A stretch of DNA of 64,000 nt from Sparassis latifolia (lineage: Eukaryota; Basidiomycota; Agaricomycetes; Polyporales; Sparassidaceae). A program made the translations under genes and the position numbers. Of the stretch, positions 10,069-33,679 are shown piece by piece. The notes under the pieces were generated by a model, which was not told the origin of the DNA, ran no database searches, and worked only from the letters and a program-made list of their open reading frames with translations. Location: NCBI GenBank assembly GCA_018466975.1, contig CM031553.1:1777259-1841258 (forward strand), read 5' to 3'. Position 1 is the stretch's first letter, and the number at the start of each line of letters is the position of its first letter.

Positions 10069-11401
10069 CTATTTCACGAAATGCCTGAGACGATATATTC
10101 CCTCTCTCGCGACTGCAACGGTATCATATACCACCCGCTCATGGGTAGTTTCGTCTTTTCTTCGAAGACGCCACCGTAGCAGAGGGCCGTCCAAGTTGTG
10201 GCGAACACCCTCTAGCATAGCGAACGCAGCTTCGGCTGTTGGACGCTGATCTGGTTGGTGGGCCGTCATAGCTTGCACCAGAGGCTCAAGAAAGTCGAGA
10301 CCCAGATATACCTTTATTCTAACGCGTTAGAAAGCACGATAACGACGCATTAATACGTTGCTCGCCTGCAGAAACTCCTTCTTGTAAAGGTTGCCCAAGA
10401 TAAAGATGTCTACCTTAAACGCATCGTACCGCACTTCCGAGGATATCTCCGGCAATTCCTTGTCTCTTCCTTGCCTGCCAAGCACATAAGGAGATTCTCC
10501 CTTCCCAATCAACGAGGAGATGCCGAAATCGATGAAATAGTACCGGACAGAATGGTCCGATCGAGATAAAGGAGATAGCATGAATATGCCATCTCGACTA
10601 GCCTCGATACGGATAGGATGATGGCCTTGAGGATACAACGAGCGGGCATCCATCATGATGTTAGCAACCGCGCAATCGCTGACGAAGTATTAGACTATCG
10701 CACAACAGCGTAAAGCCCAACATTTTTACCGGTGAGCGACGCCTTGGCTGTGTAGAAAGCAAAGACCCTTCAAATTAAATCAAATATGATTCAGAAACAT
10801 AATCCGTACATGTGTTACCTCGAGTGTTTGCCTCATGAATTCGACGACTTCTCCGATAGCACCAAAGTCTGGGTCGTTGAAGGGTCGTAGGTATAGCATA
10901 ATCAAGATGGATGCATTTGTGTCAAAAGGATCCGGAAGAACGTCTATAACTGGTATGCAGTGATTCATGGGGTGCGACCGTAGTTCCGGACCAGAGAGGA
11001 ATTGAGCGATGGTAACTTCGCTTCCGTCTTTCTCCACGCTCTTCAGTGATACCAGTTCTCCATCGGTTACTCGCACTGCATCTATCACGTGCTGAGTCTA
11101 ATAGGACGGAATGCGATCAGTTGGTAATGCGGAGCTGCATCACGAAACACACCAGCAACGATATAGAATCCTCACAAAACGCAGGAGTAACATTCATCTT
11201 TAGCCATGAAGGGGACCATCCAGGCCTGTAGCGCGCTCTGAGTTGATACCCATGTTCTTCGAGGTAGGCCTGACGATCTCTCCAGAAGATTTCTTTGGGT
11301 AGAAGGGCGTACAAGCCTTCCGCAGTTGCCCTCGCGTGATGTTGTGCTTCCTCCGGTGTACAGCGCGTCCAGGATGGAAAATCCGATATTGACTGTTTCA
11401 T
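10069..11401 (-). CDS. protein-kinase-like protein K2
   Basis: Five exons (11401-11153, 11097-10819, 10767-10730, 10678-10366, 10311-10069) encode 373 aa. The N-terminal block reads KEIFWRDRQAYLEEHGYQLR. The kinase core keeps the beta-3 lysine (LVSLKSVEKDG), the catalytic loop HRDCAVANIMMDAR, and DFG (YYFIDFGISSLI). The C-lobe has AFKVDIFILGNLYKKEF and AMTAHQPDQRPTAEAAF. This is the basidiomycete-expanded kinase-like type, acting presumably on proteins in the cytosol; the substrate is unknown. The last intron starts with GC (GCGAGC), yet the exon lengths match K3 exactly, which supports the model. It is divergent from P1 across 429 bp. Confidence 0.87.
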
Positions 11402-11830
11402 CGGGCCTCCGAGATAGCCTAGTTATAACTATAAGCACTGGATTCCAGCCGGATAGTATATTCTAAAGAGATCACGATGCGGCCGCGCGTTGACGGTGAC
11501 TCGGAAGTTTGAACTACTACTAGTACTAGTACTAGTAATTGTCATAGCACGTGCAATTCTGCAGTAGGAAATTCTAGACGTTGGCATCGGCTCACGCCCT
11601 CGTAGCGTGTGCGGAGACGAGGGCGTGTGCGGAGACCGGCAAGCCCTCAACGTTCGACAACCCTCAAGGCCTCACGCGCACGAGTAAAACATGAAGTTTG
11701 TGCAACCATTAGTATTCCCCCGTTGTGCCCTCGAGCTGTACCTCCTTCCCTCCCCTGCGATTGAGCTAGTTTGTCCTCTCCATTCCAGACTCAAACCCTG
11801 CACACACTGGCGCTCGCAGACTGGTTATAC
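11402..11830. promoter_or_regulatory. bidirectional promoter region between K2 and P1
   Basis: This 429-bp spacer separates the two divergent starts. It contains an ACTAGT triplet run (about 11513-11535) and a repeated GTGCGGAGAC block (about 11608-11636). At 11755-11778 lies a weaker copy of the CTGCGACT-AGCTCGTCTCG motif found upstream of P2 and P3. The motif is 53 nt before the P1 ATG. Some bases near K2 (GGATTCCAGCCGGATAG) match the K3/P2 spacer. Confidence 0.5.
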
Positions 11831-13334
11831 ATGGCGACTACATTTGATATCCTGGGCCTTATTTTTGGTACACTTGGCGTCTTAGCTTCTATTCCTGTGT
11901 TCTTGGCTATTGTATTATCACAGCTCCCGCCGCAGAAGCTGCGGCAACTTGACGAGGTTCTGGACGAGACTGAAACCATGTGGCGTAAAACGCTCGCAGA
12001 GGGTCTTTTTGCCGCAAAGCCCTTTGAAGAGGAGACGGACCTGGTATTGTCGTCGTAAATCTTTACTCTTCCGTTTTCACTCCGTGCCGCTGATGTGCCC
12101 CGGGCTGTGGACTATTTCGCTAGACTACGCTGTCAAACTGAGACTCTCCGACTGCAGACACATTGCGCCACATCTTTTTTCCAGGAGTTCAGAGCACTGC
12201 TCCAAGGTTTATCGTGGAATATATCTTATGTGTGTCGTGAAGTCAAGCGTACACGAGCCAGTATTTCGGTAATATTTTAATTGATATCTAGACCACGCTG
12301 CTAACGGTGCCTGAATTAGTCCACTACTGCCGAAGAGAGGAGACGTCTCCAACTTGAAGCTCGCTTCGAACAGATGCTGAGAAGAAACACAGGTGAGCAG
12401 CTTGATGGTGTATTGCACCAGTTCTTATTTATGGCTGATGCATATGACTGCAGATCAGATAGAGACAACGACGCCCATGGCTGCTGATAGCAAAAAACCT
12501 CTCGATGAAGAATATACTGAACAATGCATATATCTCGACGCAGATAATGCGGAAAATTTGTCCCTCCCACTATCCTCCGATACTACCTCGAAGTTGGATA
12601 GCAGCAGCACGGTTTGTCAGGACCAAGTCGTCAAGCCTCGCCACAGCGATACTCCCACTTCTGTGATATCCAGTCCCATAGTATGCAACGGCACTTCGAC
12701 TTCTCAGTTCCAAGCGATCGGTCCTTTCCCTGCAGACCGCGGGTCGATTGTTGCACCGCGGGTCACCTGCGACTCCATCACTACACTCCAACCAGAGACC
12801 ACCAACGTATGTGATACCGTGACGTTTCCATGCGCTGCGCTCGTTCCCTATGCCATGGGAGCCGACGGGGTCAACTCACGGAATGACCATTCATGCGACG
12901 CAGACGCTTCTCGCGGTAGTTCTACAACATCACCCCTTGGTTCCACCTCTTTGTCTGGACTGTCTTGTCCTGCTGCATTAGACCTCGCAGCGGTTCACCC
13001 CTTGACCATTCCGGAACCCGCAGTCATGCTTATGCCTTCATCTGATGCAGCCTTATTACGCCAATTCCGCCAAGTGAAACATGAGGTTATTGCACGGGGA
13101 CTCGGTTTCTACACCCGTACTTCCTCTAATAATCCTGTTCGGATGTCTGCTCGGAAGAGGCATGCAGGGAGAACCTGGGAAGAACGTGTTACTCGACGGA
13201 AGAGTACGCGCGGGGATGTGCGAGCGTTGTTATACAGCGTGGACGACTACGACGCAGAGGCGTGCTGGGGTGATTGTTCCAGCGACGAGGATACTGCTTA
13301 TGTTCACGTGCGAGGTCTCTCCAAATTGATCTGA
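11831..13334 (+). CDS. P1: undescribed protein with hydrophobic N-terminus, partner of kinase-like gene
   Basis: Four exons (11831-12054, 12124-12268, 12320-12392, 12454-13334) give 440 aa. ATG 11831 (MATTFDILGLIFG) is preferred over upstream in-frame ATGs because P2 starts at the same place. Residues 4-33 are strongly hydrophobic (ILGLIFGTLGVLASIPVFLA). An amphipathic helix follows (KLRQLDEVLDETETMW), then LRCQTETLRLQTHCATSFFQ and a short charged coil (AEERRRLQLEARFEQML). A long Ser/Thr-rich linker (about residues 150-340) is poorly conserved. The C-terminus is conserved: LLRQFRQVKHEVIARGLGFY, then basic residues, then an acidic tail. No known domain is recognised. The layout suggests membrane association; this is inference. 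Confidence 0.8.
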
Positions 13335-32083: not shown

Positions 32084-32347
32084 AGGTACTCACCCCAGTC
32101 GAGACGAGCTCAGTCGCAGAAGGTTACTTTGGGAGACACAATGAGGGAATGGCTGTACACCATACATCTTCGCTTAAGGTACCTCAAGGCGGACCTCGCG
32201 AGTCTCTGCGCACGATGCAGAGGTGCGTATTCCGCTAACCTTACTCGTCGGATGATGTAGGAAGTTTCCAAATGCAGGTTTGCCGGCCGCTTCCTTAGTA
32301 GAGGCTGGTTATGTAACGAGCCGAGCTGCCTCCCTCATCGCGATCTG
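32084..32347. promoter_or_regulatory. bidirectional promoter region between P3 and K4
   Basis: This 264-bp spacer is the shortest of the three. On the minus strand it holds CTGCGACTGAGCTCGTCTCG (32119-32100), 13 nt from the first P3 exon base. Nearby GTGAGTACCTGTGAAT could be a splice donor, which might allow an upstream exon for P3. Confidence 0.5.
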
Positions 32348-33679
32348 ATGAAACGCTCCGCCTCAGAATTTCCATCCTGGACGTTGTGTACCCCAGAAGA
32401 AGCTCAACGTCATGCCAAAACGACCGCAGATGGTTTGTACGCACTTCTACCCGTTGAAGTATTCTGGAGAGATCGCCAGCCATACCTGCAAGAACATGGC
32501 TACCGGTTGAGACCACGTTATAGACCAGGTTGGTCTCCTTCCTGGCTAGAGATTAACGTCACTCCTGCTTTCTGTGAGGATTCCATCTCTTTGGTGGTAC
32601 GTCTCGATACATCACAAGCACCGCGAGCTCTTCACATCGTCTGGACAGTCTCGGCACGTAATTGACGCAGTCAGAGAATCTGACGATCTGCTTGTGTCTC
32701 TGAAGAGTGTGGAGAGAGACGGGACGGAAGTTCGCATCGCTCAATTCCTCTCCAATCCGAAATTTCTCTCGGATTCAAAGAATCATTCTGTGCCCATCGT
32801 AGACGTCCTTCCAGATCCAATTGATCCAAAGTCGTCCATTTTGATCATGCAATACTTAAGACCATTCAATAATCCGGACTTTGGTACCATCGGCGAAGTG
32901 ATTGAATTTATGAGGCAGACGCTCGAGGTAGCATACTTTTAAAGCACACCATGGTAAATCATTCTGACTTTAGCTGAAGGGCCTTTGCTTTCTACATGAC
33001 CTGGGTGTAGCGCATCGGTAAGTAATATTCTGAAGTATGCTATCCCGATGAAGTCTGACATTATATCAGTGATTGTGCGGCTGCTAACATCATGATGGAT
33101 GCCCGCTCGTTATATCCTCAGGGCCATCATCCCATTCGCATCGCGGCAAGTCGGGATGGCATACATATGTTGTCACCTCTACCTCGAACGGGTCGCCCTG
33201 TCCGGTACTACTTCATCGACTTCGGTATCTCGTCGTTGGTTGGGGAGGGCAAGTCTCCATATGTGCTTGGAAGGCAAGGAAGGGACAAGGAACCTTCTGA
33301 GCTATCGTCCGAAGTTCCATACAACGCTTTCAAAGTGGACATTTTTACACTAGGAAACCTCTATAAGAAAGAGTTTCTCCAGGTTAGGACACTCTTTTTT
33401 TCCGCATTTTCGAAGCTCTAACGCGTAGTCCTCAAGCTATACCTTGGTCTTGAGTTTCTAGAACCTCTAGTAGAGTCTATGACTTCTCGAGAACCGGACG
33501 AACGTCCTACAGCAGAATGCGCTTTCACTAGATTTGAGGTAATTCGGAACAAGCTGGATGGCTCTCTGCTACGCTGGCGTCTGCGGAGGAAAGACGAAAC
33601 AGCACCCGAGCGCGTGGTATACGATACTGTAGCTGTCGCGAGGGAGGGAATATATCGTCTGAGGCATCTTGTAAGTTAG
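32348..33679 (+). CDS. protein-kinase-like protein K4
   Basis: Five exons (32348-32596, 32649-32927, 32974-33017, 33070-33382, 33437-33679) encode 375 aa. All exon lengths equal K2/K3 except exon 3, which is 6 nt longer. The N-terminal block is EVFWRDRQPYLQEHGYRLRP. The core keeps LVSLKSVERDG, HRDCAAANIMMDAR and DFG (YYFIDFGISSLVG). The C-lobe has AFKVDIFTLGNLYKKEF and SMTSREPDERPTAECAF, and it ends VAREGIYRLRHLVS. With K2 it is the copy most likely to be catalytically active. It is divergent from P3. Confidence 0.88.

What the first reader, a model, noticed from the sequence alone, without database searches (positions are those of the whole stretch)
10069..33679. Undescribed two-gene module: divergent kinase-like + P protein, three copies
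K2/P1, K3/P2 and K4/P3 are head-to-head pairs. Exon lengths are almost invariant: K 249/279/38-44/313/243 nt; P 224/145/70-73/881-929 nt. The third pair is inverted and 12 kb away. The repeated head-to-head linkage suggests co-duplication and a joint function. I recognise no known system of this shape. A signalling, allorecognition or selfish-element role is inference.
Basis: partly seen in the sequence, partly recalled or inferred. Interest (0 to 1): 0.88.

Follow-up and report, generated by a model that had tools for sequence, protein, structure and literature searches.

The report
Head-to-head kinase and membrane-protein gene pairs
In a cauliflower mushroom, a family of kinase-like genes is repeatedly found back-to-back with an unknown gene for a probable membrane coiled-coil protein, and the set of pairs seems to differ between strains, which makes them a testable candidate for a kinase-plus-partner system, though their function is not shown.

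Summary
In detail: three head-to-head kinase-like (K) / unknown (P) pairs lie at 10069-33679 with the stated exon sizes, except that P3 has GTG where P1 and P2 have ATG. The genome is Sparassis latifolia or a close relative; the window ends in a telomere-like array. The linkage goes beyond the window: all 13 P loci found in the 41.4-Mb genome lie divergent from a K (4 on C2, 7 on C9, 1 each on C5, C7), about 264-430 nt apart in 12. Twelve of these K and 16 database Sparassis K form one clade; 20 more distant K examined lack P. Exceptions are a truncated K, a P remnant and one orphan P C-terminal piece. K is strongly constrained (dN/dS 0.06-0.08); P is coding (0.09-0.18 N-terminal half, 0.34-0.52 tail). 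P is predicted to have one membrane helix, a coiled coil and a Ser/Thr-rich tail, matches no Pfam family and was found only in Sparassis. K belongs to a large known kinase-like family. Pair repertoires differ from two other Sparassis proteomes. Best reading: a co-inherited kinase and membrane-anchored partner; recognition or cell death is inference, and hitchhiking is the main rival.

The parts
10069..11401 (-). K2: kinase-like gene, exons 11153-11401, 10819-11097, 10730-10767, 10366-10678, 10069-10311; 373 aa; last intron GC-AG
11402..11830 (.). 429-nt divergent intergenic region K2/P1 with a GTGCGG-type motif
11831..13334 (+). P1: exons 11831-12054, 12124-12268, 12320-12392 (12338-12407 also fits), 12454-13334; 440 aa; N-terminal hydrophobic helix, coiled coil, Ser/Thr-rich tail
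   Evidence: (homologue)
13851..14033 (+). Small C2H2 zinc-finger ORF inside the duplicated unit, downstream of P1
14837..16171 (-). K3: kinase-like gene, exons 15923-16171, 15590-15868, 15500-15537, 15136-15448, 14837-15079; DFG replaced by DFD
16172..16538 (.). 367-nt divergent intergenic region K3/P2
16539..18072 (+). P2: exons 16539-16762, 16817-16961, 17016-17088, 17144-18072; 456 aa
18627..18884 (+). Copy of the C2H2 zinc-finger ORF, downstream of P2
30551..32083 (-). P3: exons 31860-32083 (GTG at the position of the P1/P2 start codon), 31657-31801, 31529-31598, 30551-31476
32084..32347 (.). 264-nt divergent intergenic region P3/K4
32348..33679 (+). K4: kinase-like gene, exons 32348-32596, 32649-32927, 32980-33017 (or from 32974), 33070-33382, 33437-33679; 373 aa
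2619..3949 (-). K1: more distant relative without P (ends of the model approximate); HRD reads HRN and DFG reads DFS (pseudokinase-like); outside the P-linked clade
23427..29485 (.). Insertion between pairs 2 and 3 with identical 228-nt terminal direct repeats (TG...CA) and AGAGG on both sides: LTR-type retroelement

Best explanation
K and P are one co-inherited two-gene unit with a shared short divergent promoter. K is a divergent but motif-complete protein kinase. P is its partner: a single N-terminal membrane helix and a long coiled coil fix it, probably as an oligomer, to a membrane, and its disordered Ser/Thr-rich tail with a short C-terminal helix is the likely docking and phosphorylation region for K. 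Pairs multiply and decay, mostly near chromosome ends, so strains carry different sets; the most likely use is strain-variable signalling, for example recognition of nonself or of microbes. Shown: gene structures, linkage, restriction of P to one K clade in this genome, coding constraint, repertoire differences from two other proteomes. Predicted from sequence: P topology, kinase competence. Inferred: physical K-P interaction, phosphorylation, recognition role.
For: Linkage: all 13 P loci found lie divergent from a K on contigs C2, C9, C5 and C7. The gap is about 264-430 nt in 12 (K start approximate in C9b, C9e, C9f and C5); on C7 a P remnant stands about 274 nt from K and a fuller P 2.3 kb away. 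Twelve of these K (C5 piece not placed) plus 16 S. latifolia/S. crispa K form one clade, ultrafast bootstrap 100. The P profile finds no P near the 20 more distant K loci examined, even at E<=5. K and P distances correlate: r=0.92, p=0.0001 for 12 pairs; r=0.72, p=0.026 within the 7 C9 pairs; r=0.85, p=0.17 within the 4 C2 pairs. dN/dS among the four C2 copies is 0.06-0.08 for K, 0.09-0.18 for P exons 1-2 (one of six comparisons saturated) and 0.34-0.52 for P exons 3-4; dS is high, so these are rough. Catalytic Lys, HRD and the following Asn are present in 12 of 12 own K models, DFG in 11 of 12. All 9 database P proteins sit on contigs (told apart by length) that also carry P-clade K; the S. 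crispa tags SCP_1000130 (P) and SCP_1000140 (K) look consecutive. P has an N-terminal hydrophobic 19-mer (Kyte-Doolittle mean 2.08-2.79 in 13 of 14 sequences, 1.64 in C9c), heptad periodicity of helix 3 above the 95% level of shuffles of the P1 segment in 14 of 14, and, in the homologue P0001, AlphaFold2 helices 4-30, 34-56, 63-145 at block pLDDT 66-92. A shared intergenic motif exceeds 20 of 20 shuffles, though the real set had twice as many restarts.
Against: K is widespread, but P was found only in Sparassis, so many K may act without a recognisable P; the search sees only relatives sharing short exact words and scored a capped set. Three K positions distinguish the P-linked clade from 33 outside proteins (at least 90% against at most 15%), little sign of co-adaptation. 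The 13 pairs are copies of one ancestral pair, not independent events. Exceptions: the C5 K is truncated; the P next to the C7 K is a remnant while that K is 374/376 identical in S. crispa; one orphan P C-terminal piece lies at C9:199124-199591. Strain counterparts do not always come as pairs: C9g, C7, C9e and C9f have K counterparts at 94-100% but P at most 56%, and C9d has P at 99.7% but K at 86%; missing annotation or uncoupled change could explain this. At shared loci P is not clearly more polymorphic than K. At least 8 of the 20 P-less K have other small divergent ORFs upstream, so a divergent small neighbour may be ordinary for this family. No expression, interaction or phenotype data.
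Confidence: 0.5

Rival explanations
1. P is a lineage-specific neighbour that simply rode along when K duplicated by tandem and segmental duplication; there is no joint function.
For: K is widespread while P was found only in Sparassis; pairs descend from one ancestor; a C2H2 ORF is repeated with the C2 pairs too; few clade-specific K changes; other K subclades have other divergent neighbours; several loci have a strain counterpart for only one partner.
Against: Linkage persists to 60% K identity and 23% P N-terminal identity across contigs, and P stays coding with its N-terminal half constrained.
Confidence: 0.3
2. The pair is a regulated cell-death switch working like RIPK3-MLKL: K phosphorylates P, and the N-terminal membrane helix of P then permeabilises membranes, serving somatic incompatibility or immunity.
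For: P begins with a hydrophobic helix followed by helices, the property on which HeLo/HELL effectors rely according to PMC10197012 (passages read); repertoire differs between genomes.
Against: No HeLo-type Pfam match at E<=5 among 14 members; no significant Foldseek match; the model shows one 83-residue helix rather than a compact four-helix bundle.
Confidence: 0.12
3. The pair is a selfish killer-antidote element (one protein poisons, the other protects), spreading by drive.
For: Position near chromosome ends on C2 and C9 and repertoire differences.
Against: K is under strong purifying selection and belongs to a broad family; no segregation data; no comparison with known killers was made.
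Confidence: 0.05

Closest known systems
Agaricomycete 'kinase-like domain-containing protein' family (PF00069; possibly the 'AgaK1' group, name recalled)
   Same: K belongs here: about 45-63% identical to listed proteins of Amylocystis, Taiwanofungus, Grifola, Trametes, Panus and others; most K models of this genome share the 38-nt micro-exon
   Different: No P partner was found outside Sparassis; no AgaK1 reference sequence was compared
FunK1 fungal kinases (PF17667)
   Same: Large fungal kinase-like expansion; 135 exon-level matches in this genome, a lower bound
   Different: K scores 10.2-10.5 bits against a cut-off of 24.1, and none of the listed FunK1 matches lies on C2
Head-to-head fungal nonself-recognition pairs of ascomycetes (sec-9/plp-1, het-S/NWD2; recalled)
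   Same: Two adjacent genes inherited as a unit, polymorphic between strains (recalled)
   Different: Beyond kinase models, K and P match no Pfam family at its cut-off; no incompatibility phenotype known here
RIPK3-MLKL necroptosis and fungal HeLo/HELL effectors
   Same: Kinase plus a protein with an N-terminal membrane-prone helix and helical region
   Different: No detectable sequence or fold match of P
HD1/HD2 mating-type gene pairs
   Same: Divergent gene pairs (recalled)
   Different: No homeodomain match in K2, K4, P1, P2

Membership tests
Protein kinase superfamily (PF00069) | Pfam score above curated cut-off | tested here: met
   K4 33.7 and K2 34.4 bits, cut-off 31.7; K3 not scanned
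Protein kinase superfamily (PF00069) | Catalytic Lys, HRD with Asn, DFG | tested here: met
   12 of 12 own K models have Lys, HRD, Asn; 11 of 12 DFG, K3 has DFD
FunK1 (PF17667) | Pfam score above curated cut-off | tested here: not met
   10.5 (K4) and 10.2 bits (K2), cut-off 24.1
AgaK1 group | Similarity to a named AgaK1 kinase | not tested
   Name recalled and seen only in paper passages; no reference sequence was compared
HeLo/HELL/MLKL four-helix bundle | Pfam or fold match of the P N-terminal region | tested here: inconclusive
   No such family at E<=5 in 14 members; Foldseek none at E<=0.001; shallow alignments, largely low-confidence models
HeLo/HELL/MLKL four-helix bundle | N-terminal helix with transmembrane propensity | tested here: met
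   Kyte-Doolittle 19-mer means 2.08-2.79 in 13 of 14 sequences, 1.64 in C9c
Fungal nonself-recognition locus | Polymorphism between strains | tested here: met
   K2, K3, K4 best 87.3%, 86.6%, 78.4% and P1-P3 best 44-52% in two other Sparassis proteomes, whereas other loci are 96-100%; in the other direction BKA93 P0012 and P0013 reach only 87.2% and 75.3% among the 12 K modelled here. Annotation gaps and uncertain species limits remain
Fungal nonself-recognition locus | Incompatibility or cell death on fusion of unlike strains | not testable with these tools
   Needs crosses and transformants
HD mating-type locus | Homeodomain in at least one protein | tested here: not met
   No homeodomain in the Pfam scan of K2, K4, P1, P2 at E<=1

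The most novel reading that the evidence does not exclude
The K/P pairs are a basidiomycete recognition system: a largely subtelomeric, strain-variable set of kinase plus membrane coiled-coil effector pairs in which each kinase controls only its own P, and mismatched combinations after hyphal fusion trigger a response. The same plan, with partners evolved past recognition, would extend to the other K subclades, whose upstream regions hold further small divergent ORFs.
Probability: 0.15. Interest if true: 0.9.

Novelty: new variant of a known kind. Interest (0 to 1): 0.58.

Why it matters
A 2021 paper (PMC8229728, passages read) says that the mechanisms of somatic incompatibility in basidiomycetes remain completely unknown and that earlier work failed to recover orthologues of ascomycete recognition genes there. 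This unit supplies concrete, clonable candidate loci in a cultivated mushroom for which transformation is reported (PMC13117138, listing and two passages). It also gives a large uncharacterised kinase-like family a first candidate partner, and predicts that other subfamilies may have their own.
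Full report
What is there. The three head-to-head pairs exist at the stated coordinates. K2, K3 and K4 encode 373-aa kinase-like proteins with five exons (249/279/38/313/243 nt). P1 and P2 encode 440 and 456 aa with four exons. P3 is open in all four exons but has GTG where P1 and P2 have ATG; whether it is translated is unknown. K3 carries DFD in place of DFG, and the last K2 intron starts with GC. K2 and K3 are 75-84% identical in exons 1-4, while exon 5 is 93% identical and the adjoining 3' flank 93-97%, as after gene conversion.

Organism and place. The window is the last 64 kb of a 1.84-Mb contig (C2) of a 41.4-Mb genome and ends in a TTAGG array. A K/P pair 64-67 kb to the left of the window matches annotated S. 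latifolia proteins (K 373/373, P 441/450 aligned residues), so the genome is S. latifolia or a very close relative. The pairs on C2 lie about 30-131 kb from that end. The C9 cluster lies about 146-172 kb from the C9 start, which is also such an array. The C5 and C7 pairs are not near contig ends.

The linkage goes beyond the window. Searching the genome with K4 and P1, then a P profile on the fetched loci, gives 13 P loci: four on C2, seven on C9, one on C5, one on C7. Each has a K on the opposite strand, start to start. The gap is about 264-430 nt in 12 (the K start is approximate in C9b, C9e, C9f and C5). On C7 a P remnant sits about 274 nt from K and a fuller P 2.3 kb away. Exceptions: the C5 K is truncated; the models of K_C9e, P_C9g and P_C7 hold one in-frame stop each, which may be decay or a wrong splice choice. 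Three further P queries added one place only: an orphan piece of a P C-terminal half at C9:199124-199591, with no K or P start in the fetched 9 kb. None of the 20 more distant K loci examined has P; a few weaker K fragments were not examined. A tree of 80 K sequences (C11c left out as decayed; the C5 piece not modelled) puts 12 own P-linked K and 16 database Sparassis K in one clade with ultrafast bootstrap 100. The simplest history is one origin of the pair and retention through later duplications; the 13 are therefore not independent.

Constraint. Pairwise dN/dS among the four C2 copies is 0.06-0.08 for K, 0.09-0.18 for P exons 1-2 (one of six comparisons saturated) and 0.34-0.52 for P exons 3-4 (P1 with the 70-nt choice of exon 3; synonymous distances are high, so values are rough). 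P is a real, constrained protein with a fast tail. K and P distances correlate over 12 pairs (r 0.92, p 0.0001), within C9 (r 0.72, p 0.026), and not significantly within C2 (r 0.85, p 0.17, four pairs).

What P looks like. No Pfam, NCBIfam or PDB relative above cut-off was found. Homology searches found 9 proteins, all from Sparassis; they see only relatives sharing short words and scored a capped set. P has a hydrophobic N-terminal helix, a second helix, and a long helix whose heptad periodicity is above the 95% level of shuffles of the P1 segment in 14 of 14 sequences. The tail has 20-22% Ser+Thr in four P against 9% in one K, and there is a short C-terminal helix. The AlphaFold2 model of P0001 is fairly confident only for roughly residues 1-150 and 361-380. 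Anchored coiled-coil partner or substrate of K is the reading I favour; interaction is not shown.

What K is. K2 and K4 pass the PF00069 cut-off and fail PF17667, the FunK1 model. 733 relatives at E<=0.001 were found; the 120 listed carry names such as 'kinase-like domain-containing protein' or 'hypothetical protein' and come mostly from polypores as I read the species names. K is thus a member of a known, uncharacterised family. One paper lists a Coprinopsis 'AgaK1 protein kinase' (PF00069) in a table of genes changed on challenge (under both E. coli and B. subtilis; PMC4704728, one passage read); that K belongs to that group is recalled, not tested.

Strain differences. Against annotated S. 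latifolia (BKA93) and S. crispa proteins, both partners of C2x, C9a, C9b and C9c have counterparts at 96-100%. K2, K3 and K4 reach only 87.3%, 86.6% and 78.4%, and P1-P3 only 44-52%. At other loci only one partner has a close counterpart: K of C9g 100%, C7 99.5%, C9e 94.7% and C9f 93.8% with P at most 56%; P of C9d 99.7% with K about 86%. Missing annotation may explain these, but they do not support strict joint inheritance. Conversely BKA93 P0013 and S. crispa P0016 sit together on near-zero branches, yet their best match among the K modelled here is 74-75%. The two reference genomes are described as very close (PMC6207663, passages). So the sets of genes differ between strains. At shared loci P is not clearly more variable than K, though the differences between C2x P and P0001 all fall in residues 345-439.

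Shared promoter signal. The intergenic regions of 12 pairs share a GTGCGG-type motif with more information (12.1 bits) than any of 20 shuffles (maximum 10.95). Paralogy within C9 contributes, and the real set had 120 restarts against 60.

Mechanism and rivals. I favour a co-inherited kinase plus membrane-anchored coiled-coil partner used in strain-variable signalling (0.5). The main rival is passive hitchhiking of a young gene beside an easily duplicated kinase (0.3). A necroptosis-like death switch (0.12) and a selfish killer-antidote pair (0.05) are possible but without direct support. Against all functional readings stands the absence of P beside the same kinases elsewhere, as far as could be searched. 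The other K subclades of this genome also have small divergent ORFs upstream: 8 of 20 loci share them by BLAST, three more look alike by eye, in three families, each confined to one contig.

Literature. Searches for AgaK1/FunK1, for head-to-head kinase-like pairs in basidiomycetes and for Sparassis kinase-like expansions listed no paper whose title or abstract opening describes this pair; only open-licence papers are held and only the listed rows were seen.

Noticed in passing
window about 63810-64000; contig starts or ends of C2 (both), C3, C4, C9; a further array on C6 near 3.305 Mb: Telomere-like arrays are the pentamer TTAGG, not TTAGGG as reported for the polypore Taiwanofungus (PMC8865532, passage). 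Could be real or a systematic homopolymer error of the assembly.
   Followed up: partly
L016-L018 (C1) and L022-L026 (C11), upstream of the distant K genes: 8 of 20 more distant K genes share small divergent ORFs upstream by BLAST, three more by eye; three families, not shown to be related to P.
   Followed up: partly
window 2619-3949; L020 and L021: K1 and two relatives on C2 have degraded catalytic motifs (for example HRN and DFS in K1): a pseudokinase-like subclade.
   Followed up: partly
window about 9900-10318 and its copy near 14670-15085: Exon 5 and 3' flank of K2 and K3 are about 93-97% identical against 75-84% for exons 1-4: likely gene conversion.
   Followed up: partly
window 13851-14033 and 18627-18884; L012:1041-1241: A small C2H2 zinc-finger ORF is repeated with the C2 pairs; no clear match in the fetched C9 stretch.
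   Followed up: partly
window 23427-29485: LTR-type element with identical 228-nt ends and an AGAGG duplication; five inner ORFs gave no Pfam match at E<=0.01.
   Followed up: partly
window 19507-19856: 40-nt inverted arms, 95% complementary, 270 nt apart: small foldback or MITE-like element.
   Followed up: no
C9:199124-199591 (L029:4124-4591): Open C-terminal half of a P gene without P start or K in the fetched 9 kb.
   Followed up: partly
P0014, P0068: Two Trametes proteins carry two K domains in tandem, either real fusions or merged gene models.
   Followed up: no
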